Source of the DNA: a virus
Length of the DNA stretch: 21,714 nt
IMG/VR virus record: IMGVR_UViG_3300047375_000132
Coordinates: 1 to 21,714 of that record
Strand: one strand, 5' to 3'
Shown here piece after piece: positions 1,588 through 14,011 of the stretch. Position 1 is the first letter of the stretch. Each line of letters opens with the position of its first letter. Made by a program: the position numbers and the translations under genes. The notes under the pieces are model-generated. The model worked only from the letters and a program-made list of their open reading frames with translations, was not told the DNA's origin and made no database searches.

Positions 1588-1760
1588 TGTATTGCTCTTT
1601 CTTCAAAATATATTATTTCTGCATCTTGAGTTACCTCGCCTCCAGACATAAGGGACATTATCTTTAATGCTCCTGCTCTGTCTTTTGCTCGTATCTCTTT
1701 ACCCACATAAACCATGTCGTCAACAATTACCTCAATATCAAAAATTTTGTGGTGGGACAT
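1584..1760 (-). CDS. Small acidic protein overlapping portal gene end
   Basis: The ATG at 1760 (MSHHKIFDIEV) gives 58 residues and a 23-bp overlap with the portal gene. A GTG at 1796 would add 12 residues and lengthen the overlap to 59 bp, so the shorter form is chosen, though its AGGA is unusually close to the ATG. The protein looks like a compact alpha/beta fold: strand (IFDIEVIVDDMVYVGKEI), helix (DRAGALKIMSLM), strand (DAEIIYFEE). It resembles small phage proteins with an xVxVGxxxVxAxDRxxAL pattern. I know no function. The stop overlaps the next start as ATGA, which supports it as a real, translationally coupled gene. Confidence 0.66.
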   Translation of the reverse strand: MSHHKIFDIEVIVDDMVYVGKEIRAKDRAGALKIMSLMSGGEVTQDAEIIYFEERAIH

Positions 1761-3861
1761 TTCCTGTAAATAATCCTTGAGCTTGATCTTTTGCACTTTG
1801 CCTCATGTTTTCTCTGTCTCTTTCCATAATAGCATTTATTTCTGCAACATTGATCTGTGCGCCGTATTTAGCTTGCATTTCCACAACCTTAACTTTAAGT
1901 TGCGCCTCTTCAATATCTCTTTGTCTGTCATCGTCCATGATAATCTTCATTCTATCTGTTTCAGCGTCAATCATAGCCTTCTGAGCAGTAACCTGTGCCT
2001 TCTGCATCTCTGCTTGAGCGAGCATTTCCTCTGGTGAGGGCTTACTATCTTCTTGTTGTTGCGGTGGCATAGGCGGAACTTCTGTATTTATGAAAGATGA
2101 TGAGTCTTTAAAGCCAGCCATTTCTATCATTTTGGTCAAAGTGTTAGCATATTGCTGTAATGATACCAATGGGTTTTGAGGCCCTAGTAATTGCATGATT
2201 TGCTCTTGTTTTTGCGCTACATTTTGTAGAACTGAAAACTTTTCTTGGTCAGAAGACTTAGATATAGCTACATTTACTACGATATCCTTGTCATTATCCC
2301 AGTATCTTGGGTCTACTGGCACGAATTTATTGTTTAACCTGTACACATCTTGCGCATTTTGGTGTTTTATCACCAGGTTATTAACAATTTTAAACATGTC
2401 TTTGAGTCCACCCTCTGCAAAATGTCTGCAAATAAGTTCTACTCTTCCTTGTGCGCCACTCATAGTAGCCGATACAGCTTGTGAGGTGCTAGATTGTAGA
2501 GCGTCTGCGTTAAGGCCAGCTGATGCTTTAGATACGCCAGTTCTATTTTCCTTGGCTTCGTCCAAATATCCTAATACTGGGAACGCTTCTTTACCCACAA
2601 ACGGCACAGCAAATGGTTGTACCATTCCTGGCGCACGCATCCTAATAGGTTGCCCTATGTCGGTGTTTAGTACATCATCTATGTTTACTTGTCCTTCAAC
2701 AATACCCATGCGTGGGAAGATTGAATGACCTAGCGAGTCTAACGTATCACGCATGATTTGTGACTTAGCTGCCTGTATTGGTTTTAGGTAATCAGCAGGA
2801 CATGATCCTATTGCTGTGTGTGGTTCTGGATCTGGACAGAACATACATATCGGTAGTTCGTCCCAAGGCTCTACGTTTACAACATGTATGCCGTTGCCAA
2901 TGGTACATACCCTAACTCTTTCGTCTATGCCGTCTCCGTCATAATCATAGAATAAGTAATGCTCTACATATAAAACATCTTTCCCGCCTGAATCCCCGCG
3001 GTTTGGATATACCATATTGTCAAATGGGTTTCTTGCTTCTATCTCTTCGTATGCTTCTGGATCTACCGCGCTTCCGCCGTAGCCAGCATGCTGTTCTACT
3101 TCGTCTTGGTCGTAACCCATTGCAACTAAATCAGATACAGACTTAATCATTCTGTGAGCAACATAAGAAGAGGAGTCAAGATCGCGCGCGTGCCTGGAAA
3201 GCAACACCTCTTCTGGTGGTATAGCCTCTATACATACCTGGTTCTTTTCTTTCAGTCTTCTGATGGTAAGATCATAACTTGCTGGTATTTCCTGGGTGAC
3301 TTCCTCACCGCTCATAGGATCTATCACAGTCATGCTTTCCATTGTGACTGACTCTTCTACAATTTCCACGTCTTTGTCTATGATTAATGCCTGGTAAGAT
3401 TGCGGATCTAAATTTGTATATTCGTGAGTGGTAGCAACAATGCTGTCATCCCAGAATACTTTTACAAAACCAGTCTTTCTAACCAGCGCATCTTTAAACG
3501 CATCATACAAAACTTGAAAACCGTTATTTTTTTGTTGGATAATATAGTTAATATAATCAGTTTGCTGTTCGGCAAGTTGGATATCTTCTGGACCTTTAGG
3601 TACAAACTCTACAACTTTTTTAGTGCCAAAGAAGGTACGCATGATAGACGGCAACATAAACAATATGCTCTCTCTAACATCGGTAGATATGAACTCTGAC
3701 TGTAACGAGCTAGTTCCCTCTGGCGAATCACCTAAATAATATTCTGTTGATTCAGCTCTTTCCGCGCCAACCATGTGTATAAAATCACTAGCATCGTCCA
3801 TCTCTGATTTAAGAACGCCTGCTAGGGTTTCTATGTTATTGTCATCTATATCTTTTGCCAT
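1738..3861 (-). CDS. P22-like portal protein
   Basis: A 707-residue protein close to the length of the P22 portal (about 725). The portal forms the dodecameric ring at the special vertex, through which DNA is packed and ejected and on which terminase docks. The N-terminal part has the typical helical start with E-Y-Y-x-G (about 40-44) and DVRESILFMLPSIMRTFFG (about 61-80), a signature I associate with the P22/podovirus portal family. The middle holds the core with repeated aspartates (YDYDGDGIDERVRV) and the helical wing with the SKASAGLNADALQSSTSQAV segment. The C-terminus is a long Gln/Lys/Asp-rich coiled-coil (about 610-690), comparable to the P22 barrel. It lies 3 bp after the large terminase gene, the normal phage order. 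Confidence 0.93.
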   Translation of the reverse strand: MAKDIDDNNIETLAGVLKSEMDDASDFIHMVGAERAESTEYYLGDSPEGTSSLQSEFISTDVRESILFMLPSIMRTFFGTKKVVEFVPKGPEDIQLAEQQTDYINYIIQQKNNGFQVLYDAFKDALVRKTGFVKVFWDDSIVATTHEYTNLDPQSYQALIIDKDVEIVEESVTMESMTVIDPMSGEEVTQEIPASYDLTIRRLKEKNQVCIEAIPPEEVLLSRHARDLDSSSYVAHRMIKSVSDLVAMGYDQDEVEQHAGYGGSAVDPEAYEEIEARNPFDNMVYPNRGDSGGKDVLYVEHYLFYDYDGDGIDERVRVCTIGNGIHVVNVEPWDELPICMFCPDPEPHTAIGSCPADYLKPIQAAKSQIMRDTLDSLGHSIFPRMGIVEGQVNIDDVLNTDIGQPIRMRAPGMVQPFAVPFVGKEAFPVLGYLDEAKENRTGVSKASAGLNADALQSSTSQAVSATMSGAQGRVELICRHFAEGGLKDMFKIVNNLVIKHQNAQDVYRLNNKFVPVDPRYWDNDKDIVVNVAISKSSDQEKFSVLQNVAQKQEQIMQLLGPQNPLVSLQQYANTLTKMIEMAGFKDSSSFINTEVPPMPPQQQEDSKPSPEEMLAQAEMQKAQVTAQKAMIDAETDRMKIIMDDDRQRDIEEAQLKVKVVEMQAKYGAQINVAEINAIMERDRENMRQSAKDQAQGLFTGNVPPQNF

Positions 3862-3864
3862 AAA

Positions 3865-5397
3865 TTATCCTATTCTGATTATCCTAGACTTCAGTGGTTT
3901 TTTGAAATTATAACCTAAAAAGTTAACGCTTCCACCAAAACTTGCAGCGGAGGATGCCATGGTCAATGCAAGTGCATCTGCCTTGTCTGGCGATTTAATC
4001 CCGCGCTTGCGCATTTCGTCTTTGGATTCTATTTTTATTTTACCAGTAGAAGTGTATTTATAAAGCGGTGCAGCTAGTTCTGCGACTAGCTCGTCATCGT
4101 GTGGCAATCTGCAATCACGTTGCGTTAGCCAGTCTTTAATAGCAAACCATAATTCCGCGCGCAAGTTTAAATAATTTTTTTTGCTAGAGGGCGCTTCGGC
4201 GACATTGACTCCGCGCACGGGTAAATTTTGTTCAGCCAATCTATCCACCACGCCTGCGCCCAAGCCGATTACATCTACCAATATTTCTTGTGGTCTTTCA
4301 ATGGCGGTACATTCATCAAATTTATTTTTTATCACTCCACACAATTGCATAAGATCCATAGACTTAAATGACTTGATACTCATTACATGGTTTCCCTGGC
4401 GGATACACAGCGCAGAGTTATCACCGCCGAATCGCGCTACATCTAGTCCCCAGATAATCGGTGCGTTAGCAGTTAGCGAGACATCCCTATCAATCGCTGA
4501 CTTAACCAATCCCATTGGTATTACAGTATCATCATCCGCGGATGGAAACTCGCCCATCACCTCCACGCGCGCGACGGTGGAATCTTCGCCGTACTGCTCA
4601 ATCATGGTTTGGAAAAGCTTTTGGTCTGTGCCTTCTACAGTTCGCGAGTCTATCTGTTCGTTTTTCCAGAAGGATTGCTTGGAGTTAAAGCTGTCGTAGA
4701 ATGGCCCAGTGTTTCGGCGCGGGTTGGAGAAAGTAAACCAGTACCTATCGCGCGTGGGTTCGGAGAAGAAACCCTCGGAGACGGAGTAGATGGGCGCGGG
4801 GATACCCGAAGCTTCATCCATGATTAAGCAAACTCCGTATGATGAGTGGATGCCTGCAAACGCATCTGGGTTTTCCTCGCTCCATAACTGTGCTTGCGCG
4901 TAGTAATAACCAGTATCTATCTTAAGGTCATTAATCAGCGCATCTTCAAACCATTGTGCGGGTTTAATCGTGGTGGCAGTCTTGGTAAACCAATGAGAGT
5001 TTATAGACAGCGTGAGCCATTTGCCAAGTTCCGCCCATGTTCTTGAGCGGAGCTGTTGTTCGGTGTTAGCGGTAACGATAATGGTTGACCCCAGGCGCGT
5101 GGAGAGCATCCATAGAATGATCCATGCGACTAATGCAGATTTACCAATACCACGACCTGATGCTACGGCTAGTCTAAACATCTCTGGTAAATCTAATACG
5201 TTGTTACGCTCAATGTGTATTGCCATTTCTCGCAAAATTTTCTCTTGCCACTTTCTTGGTCCTTTGAAGTCTTCAAGGGGGGTGTCTTTCTGTCCCCATG
5301 GGAAGACATACTTAACAAAGTTTACTGGGTTGTCTTTGATTGGTCCTGACCATAGTTCGGTCATGAGTTCTTTTTCTAGTTTTACGCCGTATTTCAT
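3865..5397 (-). CDS. terL: Terminase large subunit (packaging ATPase/nuclease)
   Basis: A 510-residue motor protein that cuts concatemeric DNA and pumps it into the prohead through the portal. ATPase domain: Walker A ASGRGIGKS at 79-87, Walker B with catalytic Glu LIMDEA at 191-196, and a coupling-motif-like FSNP at 223-226. Nuclease domain (RNase H fold): acidic residues in GLDVARFG (Asp319), LVDVIGLG (Asp375) and SPDKADALAL (Asp471/Asp474). Length and order match family norms. The ATG at 5397 has no Shine-Dalgarno; upstream is a long A/T tract. It lies between the small terminase (148-bp gap) and portal. The coding DNA is richer in GCG and CGC codons than the ejection genes. Confidence 0.96.
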   Translation of the reverse strand: MKYGVKLEKELMTELWSGPIKDNPVNFVKYVFPWGQKDTPLEDFKGPRKWQEKILREMAIHIERNNVLDLPEMFRLAVASGRGIGKSALVAWIILWMLSTRLGSTIIVTANTEQQLRSRTWAELGKWLTLSINSHWFTKTATTIKPAQWFEDALINDLKIDTGYYYAQAQLWSEENPDAFAGIHSSYGVCLIMDEASGIPAPIYSVSEGFFSEPTRDRYWFTFSNPRRNTGPFYDSFNSKQSFWKNEQIDSRTVEGTDQKLFQTMIEQYGEDSTVARVEVMGEFPSADDDTVIPMGLVKSAIDRDVSLTANAPIIWGLDVARFGGDNSALCIRQGNHVMSIKSFKSMDLMQLCGVIKNKFDECTAIERPQEILVDVIGLGAGVVDRLAEQNLPVRGVNVAEAPSSKKNYLNLRAELWFAIKDWLTQRDCRLPHDDELVAELAAPLYKYTSTGKIKIESKDEMRKRGIKSPDKADALALTMASSAASFGGSVNFLGYNFKKPLKSRIIRIG

Positions 5398-5545: not shown

Positions 5546-6007
5546 TTATTCATTCGCGCCCTCGCCCTCGCCCTTGGCGCTAGCGCTAACTGTAGGCGCT
5601 TGAGTGCGCTCTGGGAGCGCTTGCGCTGGCGCGTGTTCAATGATTCTTTCGCGCGCTTGCGTGAGTACATCACCAAGATTAAGTTGATGATCTACAACCT
5701 GGCGATCGCTCCAATCCTCTGGCGCGCGGTTGCGGAGGTAGAAAGAGATCGCGTTGAAGTTCTTGTCTTCTATTGTTTCCATGAGTTTTGAAGTTACAAA
5801 TGCCAGGCCTTTGCTTTTCCCACGATCTAGAGCGTCCGCAATTCCCGTACTTTTCTTTTCTCTATGTCTGTTAAATACATCCCAACCAACGCCCAGACTT
5901 CTGCAAATGTCCATGATTCCTAGACCTTGTGACGCTAGATGTTCAACCCTTTCCGCATCTATTACAACTGGTTTACGTCCTCTCTTTTTAGGTGTTTTTG
6001 TTTCCAT
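5546..6007 (-). CDS. terS: Terminase small subunit
   Basis: A 153-residue DNA-recognition subunit of the packaging motor. It begins with a basic KTPKKRGRKP tail, then a helix-turn-helix (about 15-50: ERVEHLASQGLGIMDICRSLGVGWDVFNRHR), then a helical oligomerisation region, with the SFYLRNRAPEDWSDRQ motif (about 88-103) that is characteristic of phage TerS-like proteins. The last 30 residues are Ala/Pro/Gly/Glu-rich and probably disordered, usually the part that meets the large subunit. The gene leads the minus-strand packaging operon, immediately upstream of terL. Start ATG at 6007 follows CGGA at short spacing. The 3' end of its DNA is strikingly GCGC-rich (see repeat entry). Confidence 0.87.
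   Translation of the reverse strand: METKTPKKRGRKPVVIDAERVEHLASQGLGIMDICRSLGVGWDVFNRHREKKSTGIADALDRGKSKGLAFVTSKLMETIEDKNFNAISFYLRNRAPEDWSDRQVVDHQLNLGDVLTQARERIIEHAPAQALPERTQAPTVSASAKGEGEGANE
5577..5627. repeat. Six GCGCT repeats in the terS 3' end; candidate pac site
   Basis: Six copies of GCGCT on the plus strand begin at 5577, 5583, 5596, 5606, 5617 and 5623. Three successive copies are spaced 10 and 11 bp, about one helical turn. They lie within the small terminase coding region for its disordered tail. In phage P22 the packaging start (pac) lies inside the small terminase gene (established), so these could be recognition sites. They may instead be a by-product of Ala/Ser codons (GCG, AGC GCT) in a low-complexity tail. 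Confidence 0.4.
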
Positions 6008-6065
6008 ATTCCGTTTAATTGTACTCTATAAACCCTTTATTTATCGGATTTAAGCAATTAATTAC

Positions 6066-6106
6066 ACATTTATGCATATAAAGTGTTGCATTTAGTGTGT
6101 AAATGT
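6066..6106. promoter_or_regulatory. 7-bp inverted repeat, possible operator between divergent operons
   Basis: ACATTTA at 6066-6072 is mirrored by TAAATGT at 6100-6106, with the candidate plus-strand -35 box inside the loop and the -10 just beyond. The gap of 152 bp (6008-6159) separates the divergent terminase and early operons and contains no gene. A repressor dimer binding here could control the early promoter. On the minus strand TTTACA-17-TATATG within the same stretch could drive the terminase operon, but this is weak. Confidence 0.35.
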
Positions 6107-6113
6107 AGATAAT
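6086..6113 (+). promoter_or_regulatory. Candidate sigma-70-type early promoter
   Basis: TTGCAT (6086-6091), a 16-bp spacer and GATAAT (6108-6113) make a good sigma-70-like promoter. Transcription would begin near 6120, about 40 bases before the first early gene, whose ATG at 6160 follows a strong GGAGAAG ribosome-binding site (6148-6154). The assignment rests on sequence similarity only. Confidence 0.55.
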
Positions 6114-6159
6114 GGGTATTGTAAGGCAATAAAGTTTTACATACTTTGGAGAAGTAATT

Positions 6160-6501
6160 ATGAACGGATACACAGAAAACCTAGAAGAGTTCGGAACAAG
6201 AGAACTCAAAGAAGCAGGTAAATTATTAACAGCTATCGGTAATGGTTTACCAGATGATTTTTATAACCAAGGAATAAAAGTTGGTTTTAATATGAACTCT
6301 GGTTATGTCTTTTTGACTAATGCCGATTACCAGGTGGCTATGTATGATGACGAAAGCGAAGAACTATACAGCTTTTACACAACACCATACGAAGGCAGAG
6401 AGGGTTGTTATGAAGAACTATTGCAAGAATATGACGACATGCACCCAGAAGATCAAGAGTTTATGGATGACATCAAACAATATAATAGAAAGGTGGCATA
6501 A
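6160..6501 (+). CDS. Conserved acidic phage/plasmid protein, first early gene
   Basis: A 113-residue protein with about 25 acidic against 8 basic residues. It shows the pattern of a widespread family of unknown function that I recall from phages and plasmids: Y-T-x-N-L-x-E-F-G-x-R-E at the start, DDFYNQGIKVGFNMNSGYVFLTNADYQVAM in the middle (split here as NMNSGYVFLTN then ADYQVAM), then YSFYTTPYEGREG and a C-terminal EYDDMHPEDQEFM. No catalytic motif or membrane segment is visible. It has the best promoter and ribosome-binding site of the block, so it should be strongly and early expressed. The family's frequent presence on mobile elements is compatible with a host-interaction role, which is inference. 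Confidence 0.82.
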   Translation: MNGYTENLEEFGTRELKEAGKLLTAIGNGLPDDFYNQGIKVGFNMNSGYVFLTNADYQVAMYDDESEELYSFYTTPYEGREGCYEELLQEYDDMHPEDQEFMDDIKQYNRKVA

Positions 6502-6768
6502 ATGAGAATAGGAAACCTAAAGACATCTATAGAACTTAAAAAAGAAGAGGGCAAAAGAACTGCTTTATACAATGGAAATGAAATACACCTAGACAATCAA
6601 ACGATAGTTATCGTTGATTATGAGCAAGGCTACTACCCATTAAAAGCAAATAATGGTTTTGATTATCACGATATGACACAAGAAGAGATAAACCAATTTA
6701 ACAAAGAGCAAGGCTTAAGCAATGAAGCTATAGAACTAATGCTCAACAACAGCATGAGAGGGGCATAA
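6502..6768 (+). CDS. Early small protein, 88 aa
   Basis: Starts directly after the stop of the previous gene (TAA then ATG) with GAAAGGTGG upstream, so it is surely co-translated. The first half looks like a small beta-rich unit (ELKKEEGKRTALYNGNEIHLDNQTIVIVDYEQGYYPLKAN). The second half is a charged helix (MTQEEINQFNKEQGLSNEAIELMLNNSM). I know no family for it. The basic-to-acidic balance is near neutral to mildly acidic. Being second in the early operon suggests an immediate-early factor acting on the host. Confidence 0.74.
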   Translation: MRIGNLKTSIELKKEEGKRTALYNGNEIHLDNQTIVIVDYEQGYYPLKANNGFDYHDMTQEEINQFNKEQGLSNEAIELMLNNSMRGA

Positions 6769-6769
6769 C

Positions 6770-6868
6770 ATGACATTTAAACAACTAATAACCAAACTAA
6801 TAGAGAAGCCACGAAATAGAAAAGCGTGGCACGGCTCATATTTAATTAACCATTTTTTAAAAAACTAG
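6770..6868 (+). CDS. Tiny early protein, 32 aa
   Basis: ATG at 6770 begins one base after the previous stop and is preceded by GAGAGGGG, one of the strongest ribosome-binding sites in the window. The frame ends TAG at 6866-6868. The product MTFKQLITKLIEKPRNRKAW... is basic with an amphipathic N-terminal helix and a hydrophobic/aromatic C-terminus (HGSYLINHFLKN). Too short for homology inference, but position, spacing and ribosome-binding site support a true gene. Confidence 0.5.
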   Translation: MTFKQLITKLIEKPRNRKAWHGSYLINHFLKN

Positions 6869-6876
6869 GAGCAATT

Positions 6877-7155
6877 ATGAAAGAAAAAGACTATGGAAAC
6901 GGATATAACAGCAATAACTCAATCGCTATTATTTGGGCAATAGATGATGTTAAAGACCAACTAGAAATACTAAACGAGGATATGCCCGAAAAGGTTGACC
7001 TAGAATTAACTGATGATGACTGTATGGAAGTTTTAGGTTTTGTAGAATCTAATCATGACGCGTGTTTTGGTATAAGTTGGGAAAACCTATATCAAGGTAT
7101 TCAGTATTGTTTTGAAGATAAAATAAACGAACTACAGGAGCAGGACAATGAGTAA
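6877..7155 (+). CDS. Strongly acidic early protein, 92 aa
   Basis: Ribosome-binding site AGGAGC lies seven bases before the ATG. The 92 residues hold about 24 Asp/Glu and only 5 Lys, a net charge near -19, with an Asp cluster at LELTDDDCMEVLG. Alternating helices (WAIDDVKDQLEILNEDM; ENLYQGIQYCFEDKINELQEQ) are predicted. Phages commonly encode small acidic proteins that mimic DNA and inhibit restriction or nucleases (for example T7 Ocr, established). This protein's charge and early position fit that class, but I see no sequence similarity. Three cysteines are present without a metal pattern. It overlaps the next gene by 8 bp. Confidence 0.75.
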   Translation: MKEKDYGNGYNSNNSIAIIWAIDDVKDQLEILNEDMPEKVDLELTDDDCMEVLGFVESNHDACFGISWENLYQGIQYCFEDKINELQEQDNE

Positions 7156-7399
7156 AAACGAAGCAACACAATGGCTAGGCAATAGAGGGCAAATGATGGA
7201 TGTATCAGAGATTATCAAATGCAAAAAAGTCGGTAAATATTTATTTATACTTTTTAATGACAACCCAAATGAAGTTATCCAATATAACCTATATGACACT
7301 TTTGGAGAATGTCAAGAGGGTTATTGTCTAGAAGACTTTAAATGGACTAAAAACCATATCAGAACAAGATTAACAGGTGAATTTTATGAAAATAGATAG
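7148..7399 (+). CDS. Early small protein, 83 aa
   Basis: The ATG lies inside the last codons of the preceding gene, behind CAGGAGCAGG. The product starts MSKNEATQWLGNRGQMMDV and contains a beta-strand-like pattern (KVGKYLFILFND, EVIQYNLYD), a Cys pair (GECQEGYCL) and a basic C-terminus (KNHIRTRLTG). Unlike its neighbours it is close to neutral. No recognised domain. It overlaps the next tiny gene by 14 bp, an arrangement typical of compressed phage early regions. Confidence 0.68.
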   Translation: MSKNEATQWLGNRGQMMDVSEIIKCKKVGKYLFILFNDNPNEVIQYNLYDTFGECQEGYCLEDFKWTKNHIRTRLTGEFYENR

Positions 7400-7481
7400 A
7401 AGGCGAATACCAAAGCACTTAAGAGGTCTAAGAGATGACCAATTGCATTTATTAATATTACTATTCACGGCGAAACAATGA
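7386..7481 (+). CDS. Tiny basic protein, 31 aa
   Basis: ATG at 7386 is internal to the previous gene in another frame; the stop TGA (7479-7481) overlaps the next ATG at 7478 as ATGA. The product MKIDRRRIPKHLRGLRDDQ... is arginine-rich and then turns hydrophobic (LHLLILLFTAKQ). The exact coupling at its 3' end makes it likely real despite its size, although a chance frame cannot be excluded. No ribosome-binding site better than AGGTGAA is visible. Confidence 0.42.
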   Translation: MKIDRRRIPKHLRGLRDDQLHLLILLFTAKQ

Positions 7482-7660
7482 CATTTGACCAAGCATTAGG
7501 AAAGTACACGGCACACATGCGCGACAATGGAGTTACTGGCGAATTACCATTCGCAACAACAGAACAGTCTAAAACGAACACAGAAGGCGCGTGGTTGCTT
7601 AAAGACAAAGATGGTGACAACATAGCCTTTGTAGACAACCACGGCGTTGAGAGGCTTTAG
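7478..7660 (+). CDS. Early small protein, 60 aa
   Basis: A 60-residue protein coupled by an ATGA overlap to the tiny frame before it. It reads MTFDQALGKYTAHMRDNG at the start and ends AWLLKDKDGDNIAFVDNHGVERL, a beta-hairpin-like pattern with a DKDGD turn. Neutral overall charge. Nothing in it is recognised. Its base composition is richer in GC (GCGCG stretches) than the genes just upstream, as are the two following frames. Confidence 0.64.
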   Translation: MTFDQALGKYTAHMRDNGVTGELPFATTEQSKTNTEGAWLLKDKDGDNIAFVDNHGVERL

Positions 7661-7662
7661 AA

Positions 7663-7842
7663 ATGACCACAGAGCAAATAATGAAACAAATGCGCGATAA
7701 ATACGGCTTAAGTCAAAGCGGTGGATGGAAAAATGGCCTGACCCCAGAGAAACTGCTGCGGATCTTATCTAAAGATGACCGCGCGAAACTAACAAAAGCG
7801 TTTGCAAAAGATAAACGATACAAGCACATCAACGAGAGGTAG
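7663..7842 (+). CDS. Small basic protein, 59 aa
   Basis: ATG at 7663 follows the previous stop by two bases, behind GAGAGG; the frame ends TAG at 7840-7842. The product begins MTTEQIMKQMRDKYGLSQSGGW and ends in a basic helical stretch (KDDRAKLTKAFAKDKRYKH). Predicted all-helical, positive charge, consistent with nucleic-acid or RNA polymerase binding as in other early phage proteins, but with no specific homology that I can name. The spacing with both neighbours supports it. Confidence 0.6.
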   Translation: MTTEQIMKQMRDKYGLSQSGGWKNGLTPEKLLRILSKDDRAKLTKAFAKDKRYKHINER

Positions 7843-7844
7843 CC

Positions 7845-8030
7845 ATGAGCGTAATACACAACGAGCAACAACTAGAAAATATATATGATGAGGTTGTTGA
7901 AATGGATAACAAAGGATTATTAGAAATAGAAATAACAGATATGGTCATTAACTACTGCTTACATGCAGATGATGACCGCGATGAGATATTACAGCTCATT
8001 GCTGAATCAATTTTAAACAACCAGGAGTAA
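7845..8030 (+). CDS. Very acidic early protein, 61 aa
   Basis: Ribosome-binding site AGAGGT precedes the ATG. Of 61 residues 16 are Asp/Glu and just two are Lys/Arg (net near -14), including LHADDDRDEIL. The pattern is all-helical: EQQLENIYDEVVEMD, EIEITDMVINYCL, RDEILQLIAESILN. It resembles in charge and size DNA-mimicking or polymerase-binding inhibitors. The alternating acidic and hydrophobic residues would give an acidic-faced helical bundle. No homologue recognised. It starts two bases after the preceding stop and ends three bases before the next start. Confidence 0.64.
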   Translation: MSVIHNEQQLENIYDEVVEMDNKGLLEIEITDMVINYCLHADDDRDEILQLIAESILNNQE

Positions 8031-8033
8031 ACC

Positions 8034-8159
8034 ATGAACGGGAAAGGCAGCACACCAAGACCAATACCAGACCGCAAGAAATACGAATCAGAATTTGATC
8101 GCATCTTCGGCAAGCGCGAAAAGAAAAAACCAACCAAAGAGAAAAAAGACAAGAAATGA
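8034..8159 (+). CDS. Small conserved phage protein, KGS..RPIPxRKxYExxFDxIFGK type
   Basis: A 41-residue protein, ATG at 8034 behind a clear CCAGGAGTAA ribosome-binding site, stop TGA at 8157-8159. It reads MNGKGSTPRPIP, then RKKYESEFDRIFGKR, then a lysine-only tail. This pattern belongs to a very common but uncharacterised family of tiny phage proteins with a KGSxPRP start and a WDxIFGK-like core. It is the last gene of the early operon, just before the structured convergent region. Function unknown. Confidence 0.75.
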   Translation: MNGKGSTPRPIPDRKKYESEFDRIFGKREKKKPTKEKKDKK

Positions 8160-8171
8160 TATAATAAGTTT

Positions 8172-8236
8172 GAACTAGCGGAGGCCAATTATCTTCTCCA
8201 AAGATAAACTCCCCCTAAAAGCGCTTTCGCTAGTTC
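8172..8236. other. Nested stem-loops between convergent operons
   Basis: An outer perfect 9-bp inverted repeat (GAACTAGCG at 8172-8180, CGCTAGTTC at 8228-8236) encloses a perfect 7-bp hairpin (TTATCTT 8189-8195, loop CTCCA, AAGATAA 8201-8207) and a 10-bp palindrome AAAGCGCTTT (8218-8227). The region 8160-8267 has no gene and separates two operons that face each other. It could be a terminator in both directions, but no U-tract follows; a structured small RNA or processing site is the alternative. Confidence 0.5.
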
Positions 8237-8267
8237 CTCGCACGCCTCCCCACGCCCACCGAACGAA

Positions 8268-8699
8268 TCACAGAAGATCCACCAAACCAACCAACAAAAA
8301 ATGCTTCTTACCACCAGGCTGAGACTTCCGCAAGCGCTTCTGCTCACCCTCTAGCACACACCAAATAATTTCTTTCTCAATTAACTCAGTCATAGCGCGC
8401 CCAGATGTCTTTCTATTCAAACCAGTCATCTTTGCATAATAACTAATCGCATCATGCGAAGACCAGGTTTCATACCTCCACCGCTCGCACACCGCCCACA
8501 TGGTAAGTTTCGCGCTAGGCGATAAATCAGTGCTTCCACACTCGCGCCTAAACCATGCCCACACTATCCCGCGCACTCGCCCAAAGTCTGATTCCTTCCG
8601 CGCAAGCGCTAAAGGTATAAACACTCCCGCTTTGTCGCTTGGGTTCTCATGGGTTGTGATCCACCAATGATTCTTGTCTATCGTTTTAAATCTTTTCAT
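8268..8699 (-). CDS. Winged-helix replication/regulatory protein
   Basis: A 143-residue protein starting MKRFKTIDKNHWW at the ATG at 8699; a TTG at 8741 would extend it into a strong hairpin and is less likely. Residues about 57-110 form a winged-helix domain: LSPSAKLTMWAVCERW, then HDAISYYAKMTGLNRKTSGRAMTELIEKEII, the layout of HTH replication-initiation proteins and of phage replication proteins that bind an origin. A basic stretch follows (KRLRKSQPGGKKH). It is the last gene of the replication operon, directly behind the iteron-like repeats, so an origin-binding or autoregulatory role is a reasonable inference. Its DNA is GC-rich with GCGCG patches relative to its neighbours. Confidence 0.66.
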   Translation of the reverse strand: MKRFKTIDKNHWWITTHENPSDKAGVFIPLALARKESDFGRVRGIVWAWFRRECGSTDLSPSAKLTMWAVCERWRYETWSSHDAISYYAKMTGLNRKTSGRAMTELIEKEIIWCVLEGEQKRLRKSQPGGKKHFLLVGLVDLL

Positions 8700-8722
8700 C
8701 TCTTTGCTTCTCTCTTTTCTCT

Positions 8723-8754
8723 GGAAGCTGAACCCCCTCAAGGGGTTCGCTTCC
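8723..8754. other. Strong 13-bp hairpin
   Basis: GGAAGC (8723-8728) pairs with GCTTCC (8749-8754); after one bulged T, GAACCCC (8730-8736) pairs with GGGGTTC (8742-8748), leaving a five-base loop. There is no U-tract, so a simple intrinsic terminator is unlikely. It sits in the leader of the winged-helix gene. Confidence 0.6.
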
Positions 8755-8755
8755 T

Positions 8756-8773
8756 ATACCATGTTAATGGTAT
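8756..8773. other. Second hairpin, 7-bp stem
   Basis: ATACCAT (8756-8762), loop GTTA, ATGGTAT (8767-8773). It lies between the 13-bp hairpin and the tandem repeats, two bases from the former. Confidence 0.55.
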
Positions 8774-8778
8774 GGATA

Positions 8779-8867
8779 TATGGGAGTGTCTTACTAGAGT
8801 TATGTCCCTATCTTACTAGAGTTATGTCCCTAACACTCCCATAGTATGTCCCTAACACTCCCTATGG
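8779..8867. repeat. 22-bp-period iteron-like repeats, candidate origin
   Basis: Two perfect 22-bp tandem copies occupy 8789-8810 and 8811-8832. A third period (8833-8854) and a partial fourth (8855-8867) share only half of the unit. In minus-strand reading TAGGGACATA occurs three times at exactly 22-bp steps, separated by 12-bp spacers of two types, one ACTCTAGTAAGA, the other CTATGGGAGTGT. An 11-bp inverted repeat (8779-8789, 8833-8843) brackets the two perfect copies. The block fills the gap between the primase-helicase and winged-helix genes. Iterons next to a replication operon are a known form of replication origin; an operator array is the alternative. Confidence 0.62.
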
Positions 8868-8871
8868 TTAT

Positions 8872-10701
8872 TTAAAAATTATCATATAAATTGATTGGAT
8901 TTTGCACTTCCTCTAACAATTCAAGCACTCCATCCTTTCTAAATAATGTTTTGGTATCGTAGTCAACATTACCAGAATTAGATTTTACTAATGCTGCTTT
9001 TACTACGGCCATGCGGTCATACTTCACGTGCATTTCCTCACAGATTCTTTCGCAATCCTCCGCGCTCGCCAACCATAAACTTAATGCAAATCTTACTGAG
9101 TCTGTAATTGAACTCGCACCTCTGATCTCAGCTCTATGGCTCATGGCATCATCTGAATCATTGGTTAATGCACCTTTGTTTAAATGATGAATGGTTAATG
9201 TGGTACAACCTAACCGCGCTGATATGTTTGCGCAGTAAGATCCCCACAATTGGCCTGCCTCATTACTGCTTGATACATTACCAGTTGTAAATGCTTGTAA
9301 CGGGTCAAAGCAAACCAACTTTAAATTTGGTATGGCTTGCAACTCTTCCACTAGCTCTTGCGCGATAGGTGTAACCCCTTCTTCTCGCATCAAGATCATG
9401 GGTTCTTTTTGCTCTGGGACTGGAAACACATAAACGTCAAACGAGGAGTTAAAACGTCTGCCTTTGGGGTCAAGCAGATCTAAACGCCTATGTATTTCCA
9501 TTAAATCATCTTCAGCACAAAAAATTACAGCATTACCATGTTCTTTAACATCCTTCCCCCACCACCGCGCGCCTGGACAAGATATTGCCAACGCTAGCTG
9601 AATAATACTTAATGACTTACCCACACCACCAACGGCTGCTAAAATGCCTGGCTTGGCTATAGGTATTAATCCATCTACTAAAAATTTTTGTGGCTCTGGT
9701 GTGCCTACTAGGTTTCTGATCGCGTACTTTTGTATACCAAGCTTGTGTTCCATCAACTCAGCTTTCACTTTATCTAAACCATGCTTTAAATATAAGTCGT
9801 TGTAGTCTCCGCGCTCGCTCGGTAAGCGCACTGCACAATTAAGCACGGCACTTGCACACTCTTGCGCTTTCTTCTCACCCACGCCGTTCTCATCATTATC
9901 TAGGGCTAGAATAAATCTAGCACCCGTTAGCTTACGCAATTTAGAGACTGCATCCAACGTAAAGTTGGCACTAAATACGCAAGCCACGGGAATCTGGGTA
10001 GCTTCATAAACTGAAGCAGCAGTTGAGTAGCCTTCAACTATAATTAATTTTTCTATATCTTTTAGATCTAAAAAGGTAGTACCAATTAAAAATACATTAC
10101 CTTTTATTTCTGATGCAGATTTGAATCTTTTGTTGCCTTTTTTATCTATAGACTGTAGAGAACGAATCTCGCCTGTAGTAGAATAGACAGGAACAATTAA
10201 GTTACCATTTAATTGCTTCAACCCATAGCTTTTAACTTTTTTATTCGTGAGATATTCATGTTCAGTAGCCTCGTGGCATATATTCATTCTTTCCTGTGCC
10301 TCTACAGCAACCTCATCTTGTCTCAGTTTCCTCTGCTCTTTCGCTTGAGCAGATGCCTGTTCCATTTGTTTATGTAGTGCTTGCTTGTCAACCACACTTA
10401 GGGTATTGGTATCTATAGAAGACCATTTGCCTTCAAATCCAGTCTTCCAATTACCATAAGTGCAGAACATGTGTTCACCCACCAGGTTTACTACATAGTA
10501 TCCACTACGCTGGCCATTTGTATCTGGTTTACTGTTTATTGCTTGTACTGGCACTCTGATTATCTCACCAGTAATTTCTAAGAAGTCTACAAGCAATCCT
10601 TGTGCTTGCATCTCGTTTATTAAATCGTGTGTACTCTTTCCTGTACTAAATCCTAAATCGTTATAGAGTACGTCCCTCTTTAGGTACTTTGTTAAATCCA
10701 T
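8872..10701 (-). CDS. Primase-helicase: TOPRIM domain fused to RepA-like ATPase
   Basis: About 609 residues; the positions below count from the ATG at 10719 used by a longer form, which overlaps the previous gene by 59 bp. The ATG at 10701 is preferred for its AGAGAG ribosome-binding site. The N-terminal domain carries a divergent primase region; TOPRIM follows with LIIVEGY (225-231, catalytic Glu) and LALDNDENG (271-279, DxD). The C-terminal domain is a RepA/RecA-like hexameric helicase: Walker A GGVGKS (364-369), FCAEDD (400-405), Walker B LVCFDPLQ (468-475), HHLNKG (511-516). Together it should prime and unwind DNA at the replication fork, as T7 gp4 does. No N-terminal zinc finger is present; a separate zinc-finger protein lies just upstream. 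Confidence 0.9.
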   Translation of the reverse strand: MDLTKYLKRDVLYNDLGFSTGKSTHDLINEMQAQGLLVDFLEITGEIIRVPVQAINSKPDTNGQRSGYYVVNLVGEHMFCTYGNWKTGFEGKWSSIDTNTLSVVDKQALHKQMEQASAQAKEQRKLRQDEVAVEAQERMNICHEATEHEYLTNKKVKSYGLKQLNGNLIVPVYSTTGEIRSLQSIDKKGNKRFKSASEIKGNVFLIGTTFLDLKDIEKLIIVEGYSTAASVYEATQIPVACVFSANFTLDAVSKLRKLTGARFILALDNDENGVGEKKAQECASAVLNCAVRLPSERGDYNDLYLKHGLDKVKAELMEHKLGIQKYAIRNLVGTPEPQKFLVDGLIPIAKPGILAAVGGVGKSLSIIQLALAISCPGARWWGKDVKEHGNAVIFCAEDDLMEIHRRLDLLDPKGRRFNSSFDVYVFPVPEQKEPMILMREEGVTPIAQELVEELQAIPNLKLVCFDPLQAFTTGNVSSSNEAGQLWGSYCANISARLGCTTLTIHHLNKGALTNDSDDAMSHRAEIRGASSITDSVRFALSLWLASAEDCERICEEMHVKYDRMAVVKAALVKSNSGNVDYDTKTLFRKDGVLELLEEVQNPINLYDNF

Positions 10702-13678: not shown

Positions 13679-14011
13679 ATGAATAAAACTATATATGCAC
13701 ATACAGATATAGGCGATGAGAAGGAATGGGATCAAGCAATAGACAAGCTTGCAACCAATAACCAAGTAGCTGGAACACACTACAAGCAATCTAGAATACA
13801 GCCGATAGACTATATATACGCTAATAATTTGTCATATAACCTTGGTAGTTGTCTGAAGTACATAACCAGAAGTAAAGGCGAGAAGAGTGATAGAGTGACT
13901 GACTTATTAAAAGCCAAACACTTTATAGATCTTGAGTTACAAATGGTACATGGTGTAGACGCAAAGGGTAATGACATTGGTAAATATTCTGTAGAAGTTT
14001 CTCTTGATTAA
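13679..14011 (+). CDS. DUF3310 family protein
   Basis: A 110-residue protein with the typical core of DUF3310 (a family of phage proteins; the T7 member gp1.7 is a nucleotide kinase in established work): VAGTHYKQSRIQPIDYI (about 30-46), then LSYNLGSCLKYITRSKGEK (about 51-69), then DLLKAKHFIDLELQM. The role in nucleotide metabolism is inferred from relatives. The gene is the first of a two-gene plus-strand pair, divergent from the HTH regulator and preceded by GTGGAG at good spacing. Transfer of this island is possible since it interrupts minus-strand modules. Confidence 0.85.
   Translation: MNKTIYAHTDIGDEKEWDQAIDKLATNNQVAGTHYKQSRIQPIDYIYANNLSYNLGSCLKYITRSKGEKSDRVTDLLKAKHFIDLELQMVHGVDAKGNDIGKYSVEVSLD

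What the first reader, a model, noticed from the sequence alone, without database searches (positions are those of the whole stretch)
6160..8159. Ten-gene block of tiny proteins, probable early/host-takeover locus
Seen: ten small genes in 2.0 kb, mostly with spacing of 0-3 bp or overlaps, each with its own reasonable ribosome-binding site, and a good promoter at the front. Two are tiny frames (32 and 31 aa) easily missed. Known: phage early blocks of this shape carry inhibitors of host polymerase, restriction or defence systems. Inference: some of these ten are anti-defence proteins. Only two families (6160-6501, 8034-8159) look familiar.
Basis: partly seen in the sequence, partly recalled or inferred. 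Interest (0 to 1): 0.6.

Follow-up and report, generated by a model that had tools for sequence, protein, structure and literature searches.

The report
Shuffled array of tiny phage genes
A marine virus of bacteria carries ten tiny genes in one run behind a single, structurally conserved start signal, and relatives swap such genes in and out between short shared sequences at gene ends; the genes probably adapt the virus to its host, but none has been shown to disable a bacterial defence.

Summary
The block is real. All ten ORFs (6160-8159, + strand), including the 32- and 31-aa frames, are under purifying selection and have viral relatives. It is the main plus-strand block of an uncultured marine podovirus-like phage fragment, between TerS and an HTH gene.

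Comparison with 44 homologous loci shows a hypervariable cassette locus: 462 small genes in 145 families, median 60 aa. The window's block is a patchwork whose DNA matches to relatives stop near gene junctions. A conserved leader precedes it: promoter, a hairpin with compensatory changes, then a Shine-Dalgarno sequence in a second hairpin loop. In relatives the same leader precedes 27 first-gene families. Unrelated genes share short end sequences that hold the next gene's ribosome-binding site; these are plausible crossover points.

'Early' and 'anti-defence' remain inference. No member matches a known inhibitor; gene 1 has a confident fold without a PDB match. In four of 40 other gene-1-bearing records, Mom or anti-restriction genes lie 1.3-4.1 kb upstream.

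Observation confirmed, interpretation partly supported. It resembles T4 PeSLs and lambdoid boundary sequences, as a new variant.

The parts
6086..6113 (+). Promoter TTGCAT-16-GATAAT in front of the block
   Evidence: Homologous hexamer pairs at the same distance from the leader core in nearly all TerS-linked relatives; not found by the consensus scan
6120..6141 (+). Leader hairpin 1 (TGTAAGGC/GTTTTACA), starting at the predicted transcript 5' end
   Evidence: 24 of 25 distinct segments form the stem against 11% of shuffles; 19 distinct stems with paired changes. The transcript start is inferred from the -10 position
6142..6156 (+). Leader hairpin 2 TACTT-TGGAG-AAGTA with the Shine-Dalgarno sequence in the loop
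   Evidence: Conserved core; pairing read from the sequence, no covariation test possible
6160..6501 (+). g1, 113 aa, acidic (net -17), virus-wide family
   Evidence: predicted fold pLDDT 92.7 without PDB match
6502..6768 (+). g2, 88 aa
6770..6868 (+). g3, 32 aa, conserved C-terminus KAWHGSYLINHFLKN, recurrent anchor of the locus
6877..7155 (+). g4, 92 aa, acidic (net -19), related to phrog_10258 of unknown function
7148..7399 (+). g5, 83 aa
7386..7481 (+). g6, 31 aa, first gene of the conserved 3' core
7478..7660 (+). g7, 60 aa, overlaps g6 by 4 bp, no clear ribosome-binding site
7663..7842 (+). g8, 59 aa
7845..8030 (+). g9, 61 aa, acidic (net -14), predicted three helices; present or absent in the 3' core
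8034..8159 (+). g10, 41 aa, basic, GKGSxPRP start
6487..6504 (+). Junction g1/g2: AGAAAGGTGGCATAA|ATG, an EVA/KVA-type shared gene end
6754..6772 (+). Junction g2/g3: TGAGAGGGGCATAAC|ATG, a variant of the same type
5546..6007 (-). TerS, left flank of the locus, divergent from the block
   Evidence: Position next to TerL, HTH_29 match; syntenic in relatives
8268..8741 (-). HTH_36-like protein, right flank, convergent with the block

Best explanation
The block is a host-adaptation cassette array of a marine podovirus-like phage, probably expressed early. Inferred mode of action: host RNA polymerase starts at the conserved promoter (6086-6113); the transcript begins with a 5' hairpin that would shield it from decay, followed by a second hairpin that shows the Shine-Dalgarno sequence in its loop, so whatever gene is in first place is translated strongly; the ten short cistrons follow by overlap and translational coupling. 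Shown by comparison: the leader, g3 and a 3' core (g6-g7-g8-[g9]-g10) recur across relatives, while the genes between are exchanged between phages, with DNA similarity breaking near gene junctions. Inferred: exchange is by homologous recombination at the leader and at short shared gene-end sequences that carry the next gene's ribosome-binding site, so an exchanged gene is expressed at once. Inferred with less confidence: most cargo proteins bind host factors, and at least one of the ten counters a host defence such as restriction (g1 and g4, both strongly acidic, are the first candidates; I put this last step alone at about 0.45).
For: Coding and selection. Hypervariable orthologous locus with fixed flanks: 44 loci, 462 proteins counting the window's ten, 145 families, median 60 aa; TerS-to-g3 slot 145-3245 bp, g3-to-g6 slot 9-1774 bp. 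Patchwork: separate DNA matches for g1, g2-g3, g3, g4, g5-g6, g6-g8, g6-g10 and g10 in different relatives; 66% of collapsed match ends lie within 20 bp of a junction against 20% expected, 0 of 2000 simulations as high. g2, g3 and g5 are 97-98% identical in phages whose TerL is 85% identical, which points to horizontal exchange. Leader: 66 first genes of 27 families behind it, second copy behind a terminator-like hairpin in 11 loci; hairpin 1 with 19 distinct stems. Shared gene ends. No structural match among those shown. Host-interaction hints: Mom or anti-restriction genes in four of 40 g1-bearing records and 0 of 40 comparison records; DNA methyltransferase, HNH and 5'-3' deoxyribonucleotidase families among orthologous cargo.
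Against: No expression data; early timing rests on layout and promoter type. None of the ten proteins matches a known inhibitor. Part of the gene-end similarity could be convergent selection for a good Shine-Dalgarno site and start overlap, although the column-shuffled control keeps the base preference of each position. The control gene set for gene ends is small (30 families). The Mom and anti-restriction counts are small, and the comparison records are fragments of other viruses.
Confidence: 0.7

Rival explanations
1. The block is an accessory to DNA packaging or virion assembly, lying next to the terminase genes and expressed late.
For: It adjoins TerS (5546-6007), and its position next to TerS is kept in relatives.
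Against: It runs in the opposite direction from its own promoter. No match to structural or packaging families for the ten genes, nor among the matches shown for 135 orthologous cargo families. Gene content turns over while TerL stays up to 92-100% identical, which is not expected of assembly proteins.
Confidence: 0.07
2. The block is a replication and nucleotide-metabolism accessory module (middle genes) that helps phage DNA synthesis and is not aimed at host defences.
For: It ends next to the replication genes; orthologous loci carry a 5'-3' deoxyribonucleotidase, HNH and exonuclease-like families; g9 and g10 relatives occur in the replication region of other relatives.
Against: The replication genes are on the other strand and far better conserved; most cargo is tiny and without any family; such turnover is unusual for replication accessories.
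Confidence: 0.2
3. The cargo is largely neutral or weakly selected filler: short genes that come and go by recombination because the locus tolerates insertions.
For: 74 of 145 families are singletons; a long ORFan region can be lost from a marine cyanophage with gain of fitness in the laboratory (PMC4503421).
Against: All ten genes show purifying selection; the expression signals are conserved, with base-pair compensation; relatives are recovered across many samples.
Confidence: 0.12
4. The shared gene ends come only from convergent selection for strong ribosome-binding sites and overlapping starts, not from recombination.
For: The shared bases include GGAGG and the start overlap.
Against: Discrete types share 13-15 of 15 bases, including positions outside the Shine-Dalgarno core; a column-shuffled control gives 0.15 pairs at 13 or more against 25 observed.
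Confidence: 0.25

Closest known systems
PeSLs (composite promoter-terminator motifs) of T4-like myoviruses (Arbiol 2010; Comeau 2014; known here through PMC4503421, PMC5931544 and PMC4177764, the originals are not held)
   Same: A regulatory element with an early-type promoter and a stem-loop sits next to small genes in a hypervariable region and is credited with modular shuffling.
   Different: Here, in podovirus-like phages, the element is a fixed leader with the Shine-Dalgarno sequence in a hairpin loop; a second copy follows a terminator-like hairpin with no promoter seen between; the further gene-end motifs are ribosome-binding junctions without promoters.
Short conserved boundary sequences of phage mosaicism (discussed in PMC3029335)
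   Same: Homologous recombination at short sequences between genes is proposed to join modules.
   Different: [quoted passage not shown] here they are frequent, of several types, and coincide with the next gene's Shine-Dalgarno sequence and start codon.
Regulatory-sequence-marked anti-defence genes of archaeal viruses (PMC11065993)
   Same: A conserved regulatory sequence precedes small, divergent, early genes, some of them shown to be anti-defence genes.
   Different: There most early genes have their own copy of the regulatory sequence and function was tested; here one leader fronts an operon and no function has been tested.
ORFanage region of cyanophage S-PM2 (PMC4503421)
   Same: A marine phage with a contiguous run of ORFans.
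   Different: S-PM2 has few stem-loop elements in the region; here the leader and gene-end motifs are regular and the orthologous locus could be compared across dozens of contigs.

Membership tests
T4-type PeSL shuffling region | Repeated early-promoter plus stem-loop cassettes between small genes | tested here: inconclusive
   Promoter plus hairpin leader found once in the window; second copies in 11 relatives lack an evident promoter
T4-type PeSL shuffling region | T4-like myovirus genome | tested here: not met
   SU10-type portal and a TerL with relatives such as epsilon15
Boundary-sequence mosaicism | Short sequences shared at boundaries of otherwise unrelated genes | tested here: met
Boundary-sequence mosaicism | Crossovers located inside these sequences | tested here: inconclusive
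   Match ends cluster within 20 bp of junctions; exact crossovers were not mapped
Phage early host-takeover block | Transcription right after infection by host RNA polymerase | not testable with these tools
   Only a conserved sigma-70-like promoter is seen
Phage early host-takeover block | Compact run of small, poorly conserved, non-structural genes | tested here: met
Anti-defence island (acr/aca type) | A known inhibitor in the block | tested here: not met
   No accepted match for the ten genes
Anti-defence island (acr/aca type) | An Aca-type HTH regulator with the block | not tested
   An HTH_36-like gene lies downstream on the other strand at 8268-8741; not compared with Aca families

The most novel reading that the evidence does not exclude
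This phage group has a plug-in system for host-adaptation genes: a structured leader and a small set of ribosome-binding junction sequences serve both as expression signals and as recombination targets, so genes, including anti-defence genes, can be swapped in and work at once. The leader would then be a bait for finding new anti-defence families in marine viruses.
Probability: 0.3. Interest if true: 0.75.

Novelty: new variant of a known kind. Interest (0 to 1): 0.52.

Why it matters
Short boundary sequences have long been proposed to drive phage mosaicism but are seldom seen at mosaic joints (PMC3029335). Here they are frequent, coincide with translation signals and can be compared across dozens of related loci, so the idea can be tested directly. 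The leader also gives a sequence handle for collecting unknown small genes from uncultured marine phages, as a conserved regulatory sequence did for anti-defence genes of archaeal viruses (PMC11065993); 27 first-gene families are already linked to it.

Tried and rejected
1) Chance ORFs: rejected by conservation and pN/pS. 2) Plasmid or well-known phage: no near match in either collection. 3) Known functions for the ten: Pfam, PHROGs, NCBIfam and PADLOC give only weak or short matches, e.g. PtuB at 3e-4 over 48 residues of g2, CdiI at 0.18 for the g1 profile; not accepted. 4) g1 fold against the PDB: no match at E <= 0.001 (best is ArdB at E 2.3, TM 0.24, meaningless); in BFVD only relatives such as the Methanobacterium virus Drs3 protein. 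5) Rfam: no match at 5900-8900. 6) g3 as an RNA element instead of a gene (it holds an inverted repeat): set aside because the changes are mainly synonymous and the frame is kept. 7) tblastn of g3, g4, g6 and g9 against cultured phages: no match. 8) The g9 model (pLDDT 80, three helices) was not searched, as matches of a short helical bundle would mean little.

Full report
What was checked. The window is a whole IMG/VR virus record of 21,714 bases, from its content a fragment. It is podovirus-like: SU10-type portal at 1738-3861, a terminase large subunit at 3865-5397 with relatives such as Salmonella phage epsilon15, and a primase/helicase (Toprim plus AAA_25) and an AAA_24 protein on the minus strand. 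No close relative is in the phage or plasmid collections. The ten-gene block 6160-8159 is on the plus strand, between TerS (5546-6007, minus) and an HTH_36-like gene (8268-8741, minus).

The ten genes are real. A gene-calling script run across 6008-8268 without the coordinates returned exactly these ten. Every gene has viral relatives, and pooled pN/pS is 0.33-0.60; the values are not corrected for multiple hits, so saturation at synonymous sites makes them too high rather than too low. The 32-aa g3 and 31-aa g6 are among the most conserved: 27 and 30 distinct ORFs, g3 with the nearly constant C-terminus KAWHGSYLINHFLKN.

The locus is hypervariable. In 44 non-redundant loci with TerS upstream on the other strand, the plus-strand stretch holds 2-19 small genes. 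With the window's ten this gives 462 proteins in 145 families, 74 of them singletons, median length 60 aa, 87% under 100 aa. Recurrent parts are g3 and the 3' core g6-g7-g8-(g9)-g10; the slot from TerS to g3 varies from 145 to 3245 bp and that from g3 to g6 from 9 to 1774 bp. The window's own block is a patchwork: g1 matches one set of relatives, g2-g3 another, g4 a third, g5(-g6) a fourth, g6-g8 or g6-g10 a fifth. g2, g3 and g5 are 97-98% identical in phages whose TerL is only 85% identical, which points to horizontal exchange. Ends of DNA matches lie near gene junctions: after collapsing, 66% within 20 bp against 20% by chance, none of 2000 simulations as high.

The leader. Upstream of g1 lie TTGCAT-16-GATAAT (6086-6113), a hairpin (6120-6141) and TACTT-TGGAG-AAGTA (6142-6156) with the Shine-Dalgarno sequence in the loop. 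A simple promoter scan misses it, but the same arrangement recurs at the same place in relatives. A scan of IMG/VR for the core plus a start codon found 81 stretches. Among those linked to a TerS, 66 first genes fall into 27 families: the leader stays while the gene behind it changes. Hairpin 1 is supported by structure-preserving change: 24 of 25 distinct segments form a stem of score 5 or more, against 11% of shuffles, with 19 distinct stems (for example CAAGGC/GCCTTG and CAAAGC/GCTTTG). The 25th can form a 6-bp stem with a longer loop than the script allowed (my reading of its sequence). For hairpin 2 the sequence is constant, partly because it was the search pattern, so its pairing is inferred only. 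In 11 loci a second leader copy follows a terminator-like hairpin (AAGCCCGC-ttat-GTGGGCTTTTT) about 265-345 bp further on, with no promoter evident between. More distant relatives (TerL about 82%) have a related form, TACTTTAGGAGGTA, some behind the same terminator-like hairpin. No Rfam family matches.

Gene ends. Many unrelated cargo proteins end in the same few residues (EVA in 13 families, then QTQ, VQQ, TND and others), because the last 15 bases plus stop and next start form a few discrete sequences, for example AAGGAGGTAGCGTAATG and GAGGAGGTGCAAGGATGA. Pairs of families alike at 12 or more of 15 positions number 48.8 against 1.75 after shuffling each column, and at 14 or more 12 against 0. 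At other distances from the stop the count is 0.6-2.1. With every pair showing BLAST similarity (E <= 1) removed, 59 pairs share 13 or more bases, and in 44 of them the downstream genes differ. Genes of the neighbouring minus-strand region show none, but there are only 30 such families. In the window, the g1 and g2 ends are of this kind. I infer that these are crossover points which preserve translation of the next gene; convergent selection for ribosome-binding sites can explain part of the signal.

What the proteins may do. No function is found for the ten. g1 is a virus-wide family: at least 91 IMG/VR loci, two genomes in a pattern-based scan of about 85,000 prokaryote species, and cultured viruses of Pelagibacter, Burkholderia and Methanobacterium. 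In the annotated phages it lies among small hypothetical genes. Its predicted fold is confident (pLDDT 92.7) and has no PDB match. Its neighbours in other viruses include Mom-like DNA modification and an anti-restriction family, among many unknowns and some structural or replication genes. Mapped to records, Mom occurs in two and the anti-restriction family in two of 40, and in 0 of 40 comparison records; from the coordinates they lie about 1.3-4.1 kb upstream of g1 on the same strand. This is suggestive, not proof. Orthologous cargo of the window's group includes DNA methyltransferase, HNH and deoxyribonucleotidase families, and no PADLOC hit.

Conclusion. The added finding is the leader and junction system, closest to T4 PeSLs and to short boundary sequences but different in phage group and design.

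Noticed in passing
window 6809-6831 (inside g3): An inverted repeat GCCACG...CGTGGC lies inside the g3 frame and is partly kept in L206 (1279-1301); it may be an RNA feature overlapping the gene.
   Followed up: partly
L206 823-890 and the other two-copy loci: A terminator-like hairpin directly followed by a second leader copy without a visible promoter; possibly an attenuator or a processing site.
   Followed up: partly
L011 5112-5288; L004, L006, L009: A g9 relative lies on the minus strand behind the AAA_24 gene in L011, and g10 relatives lie between the HTH and primase genes in L004, L006 and L009: block genes also sit in the replication region.
   Followed up: no
L081 5560-5865 and 6001-6303: Two adjacent copies of the g1 family in one contig.
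   Followed up: no
window 13679-14011, + strand: A 110-aa ORF containing VAGTHYKQSRIQPIDYIYAN, which resembles DUF3310 from memory; a plus-strand gene inside the minus-strand replication region.
   Followed up: no
L063 and L064, about 3.0-3.9 kb in locus coordinates: Anti-restriction family phrog_7245 (E about 1e-64) upstream of a g1 relative on the same strand.
   Followed up: partly
L083 6001-6282 and 6503-6667: Relatives of g1 and g4 lie side by side in a contig with no other matching gene, so the two families travel together at least once outside the window's group.
   Followed up: no
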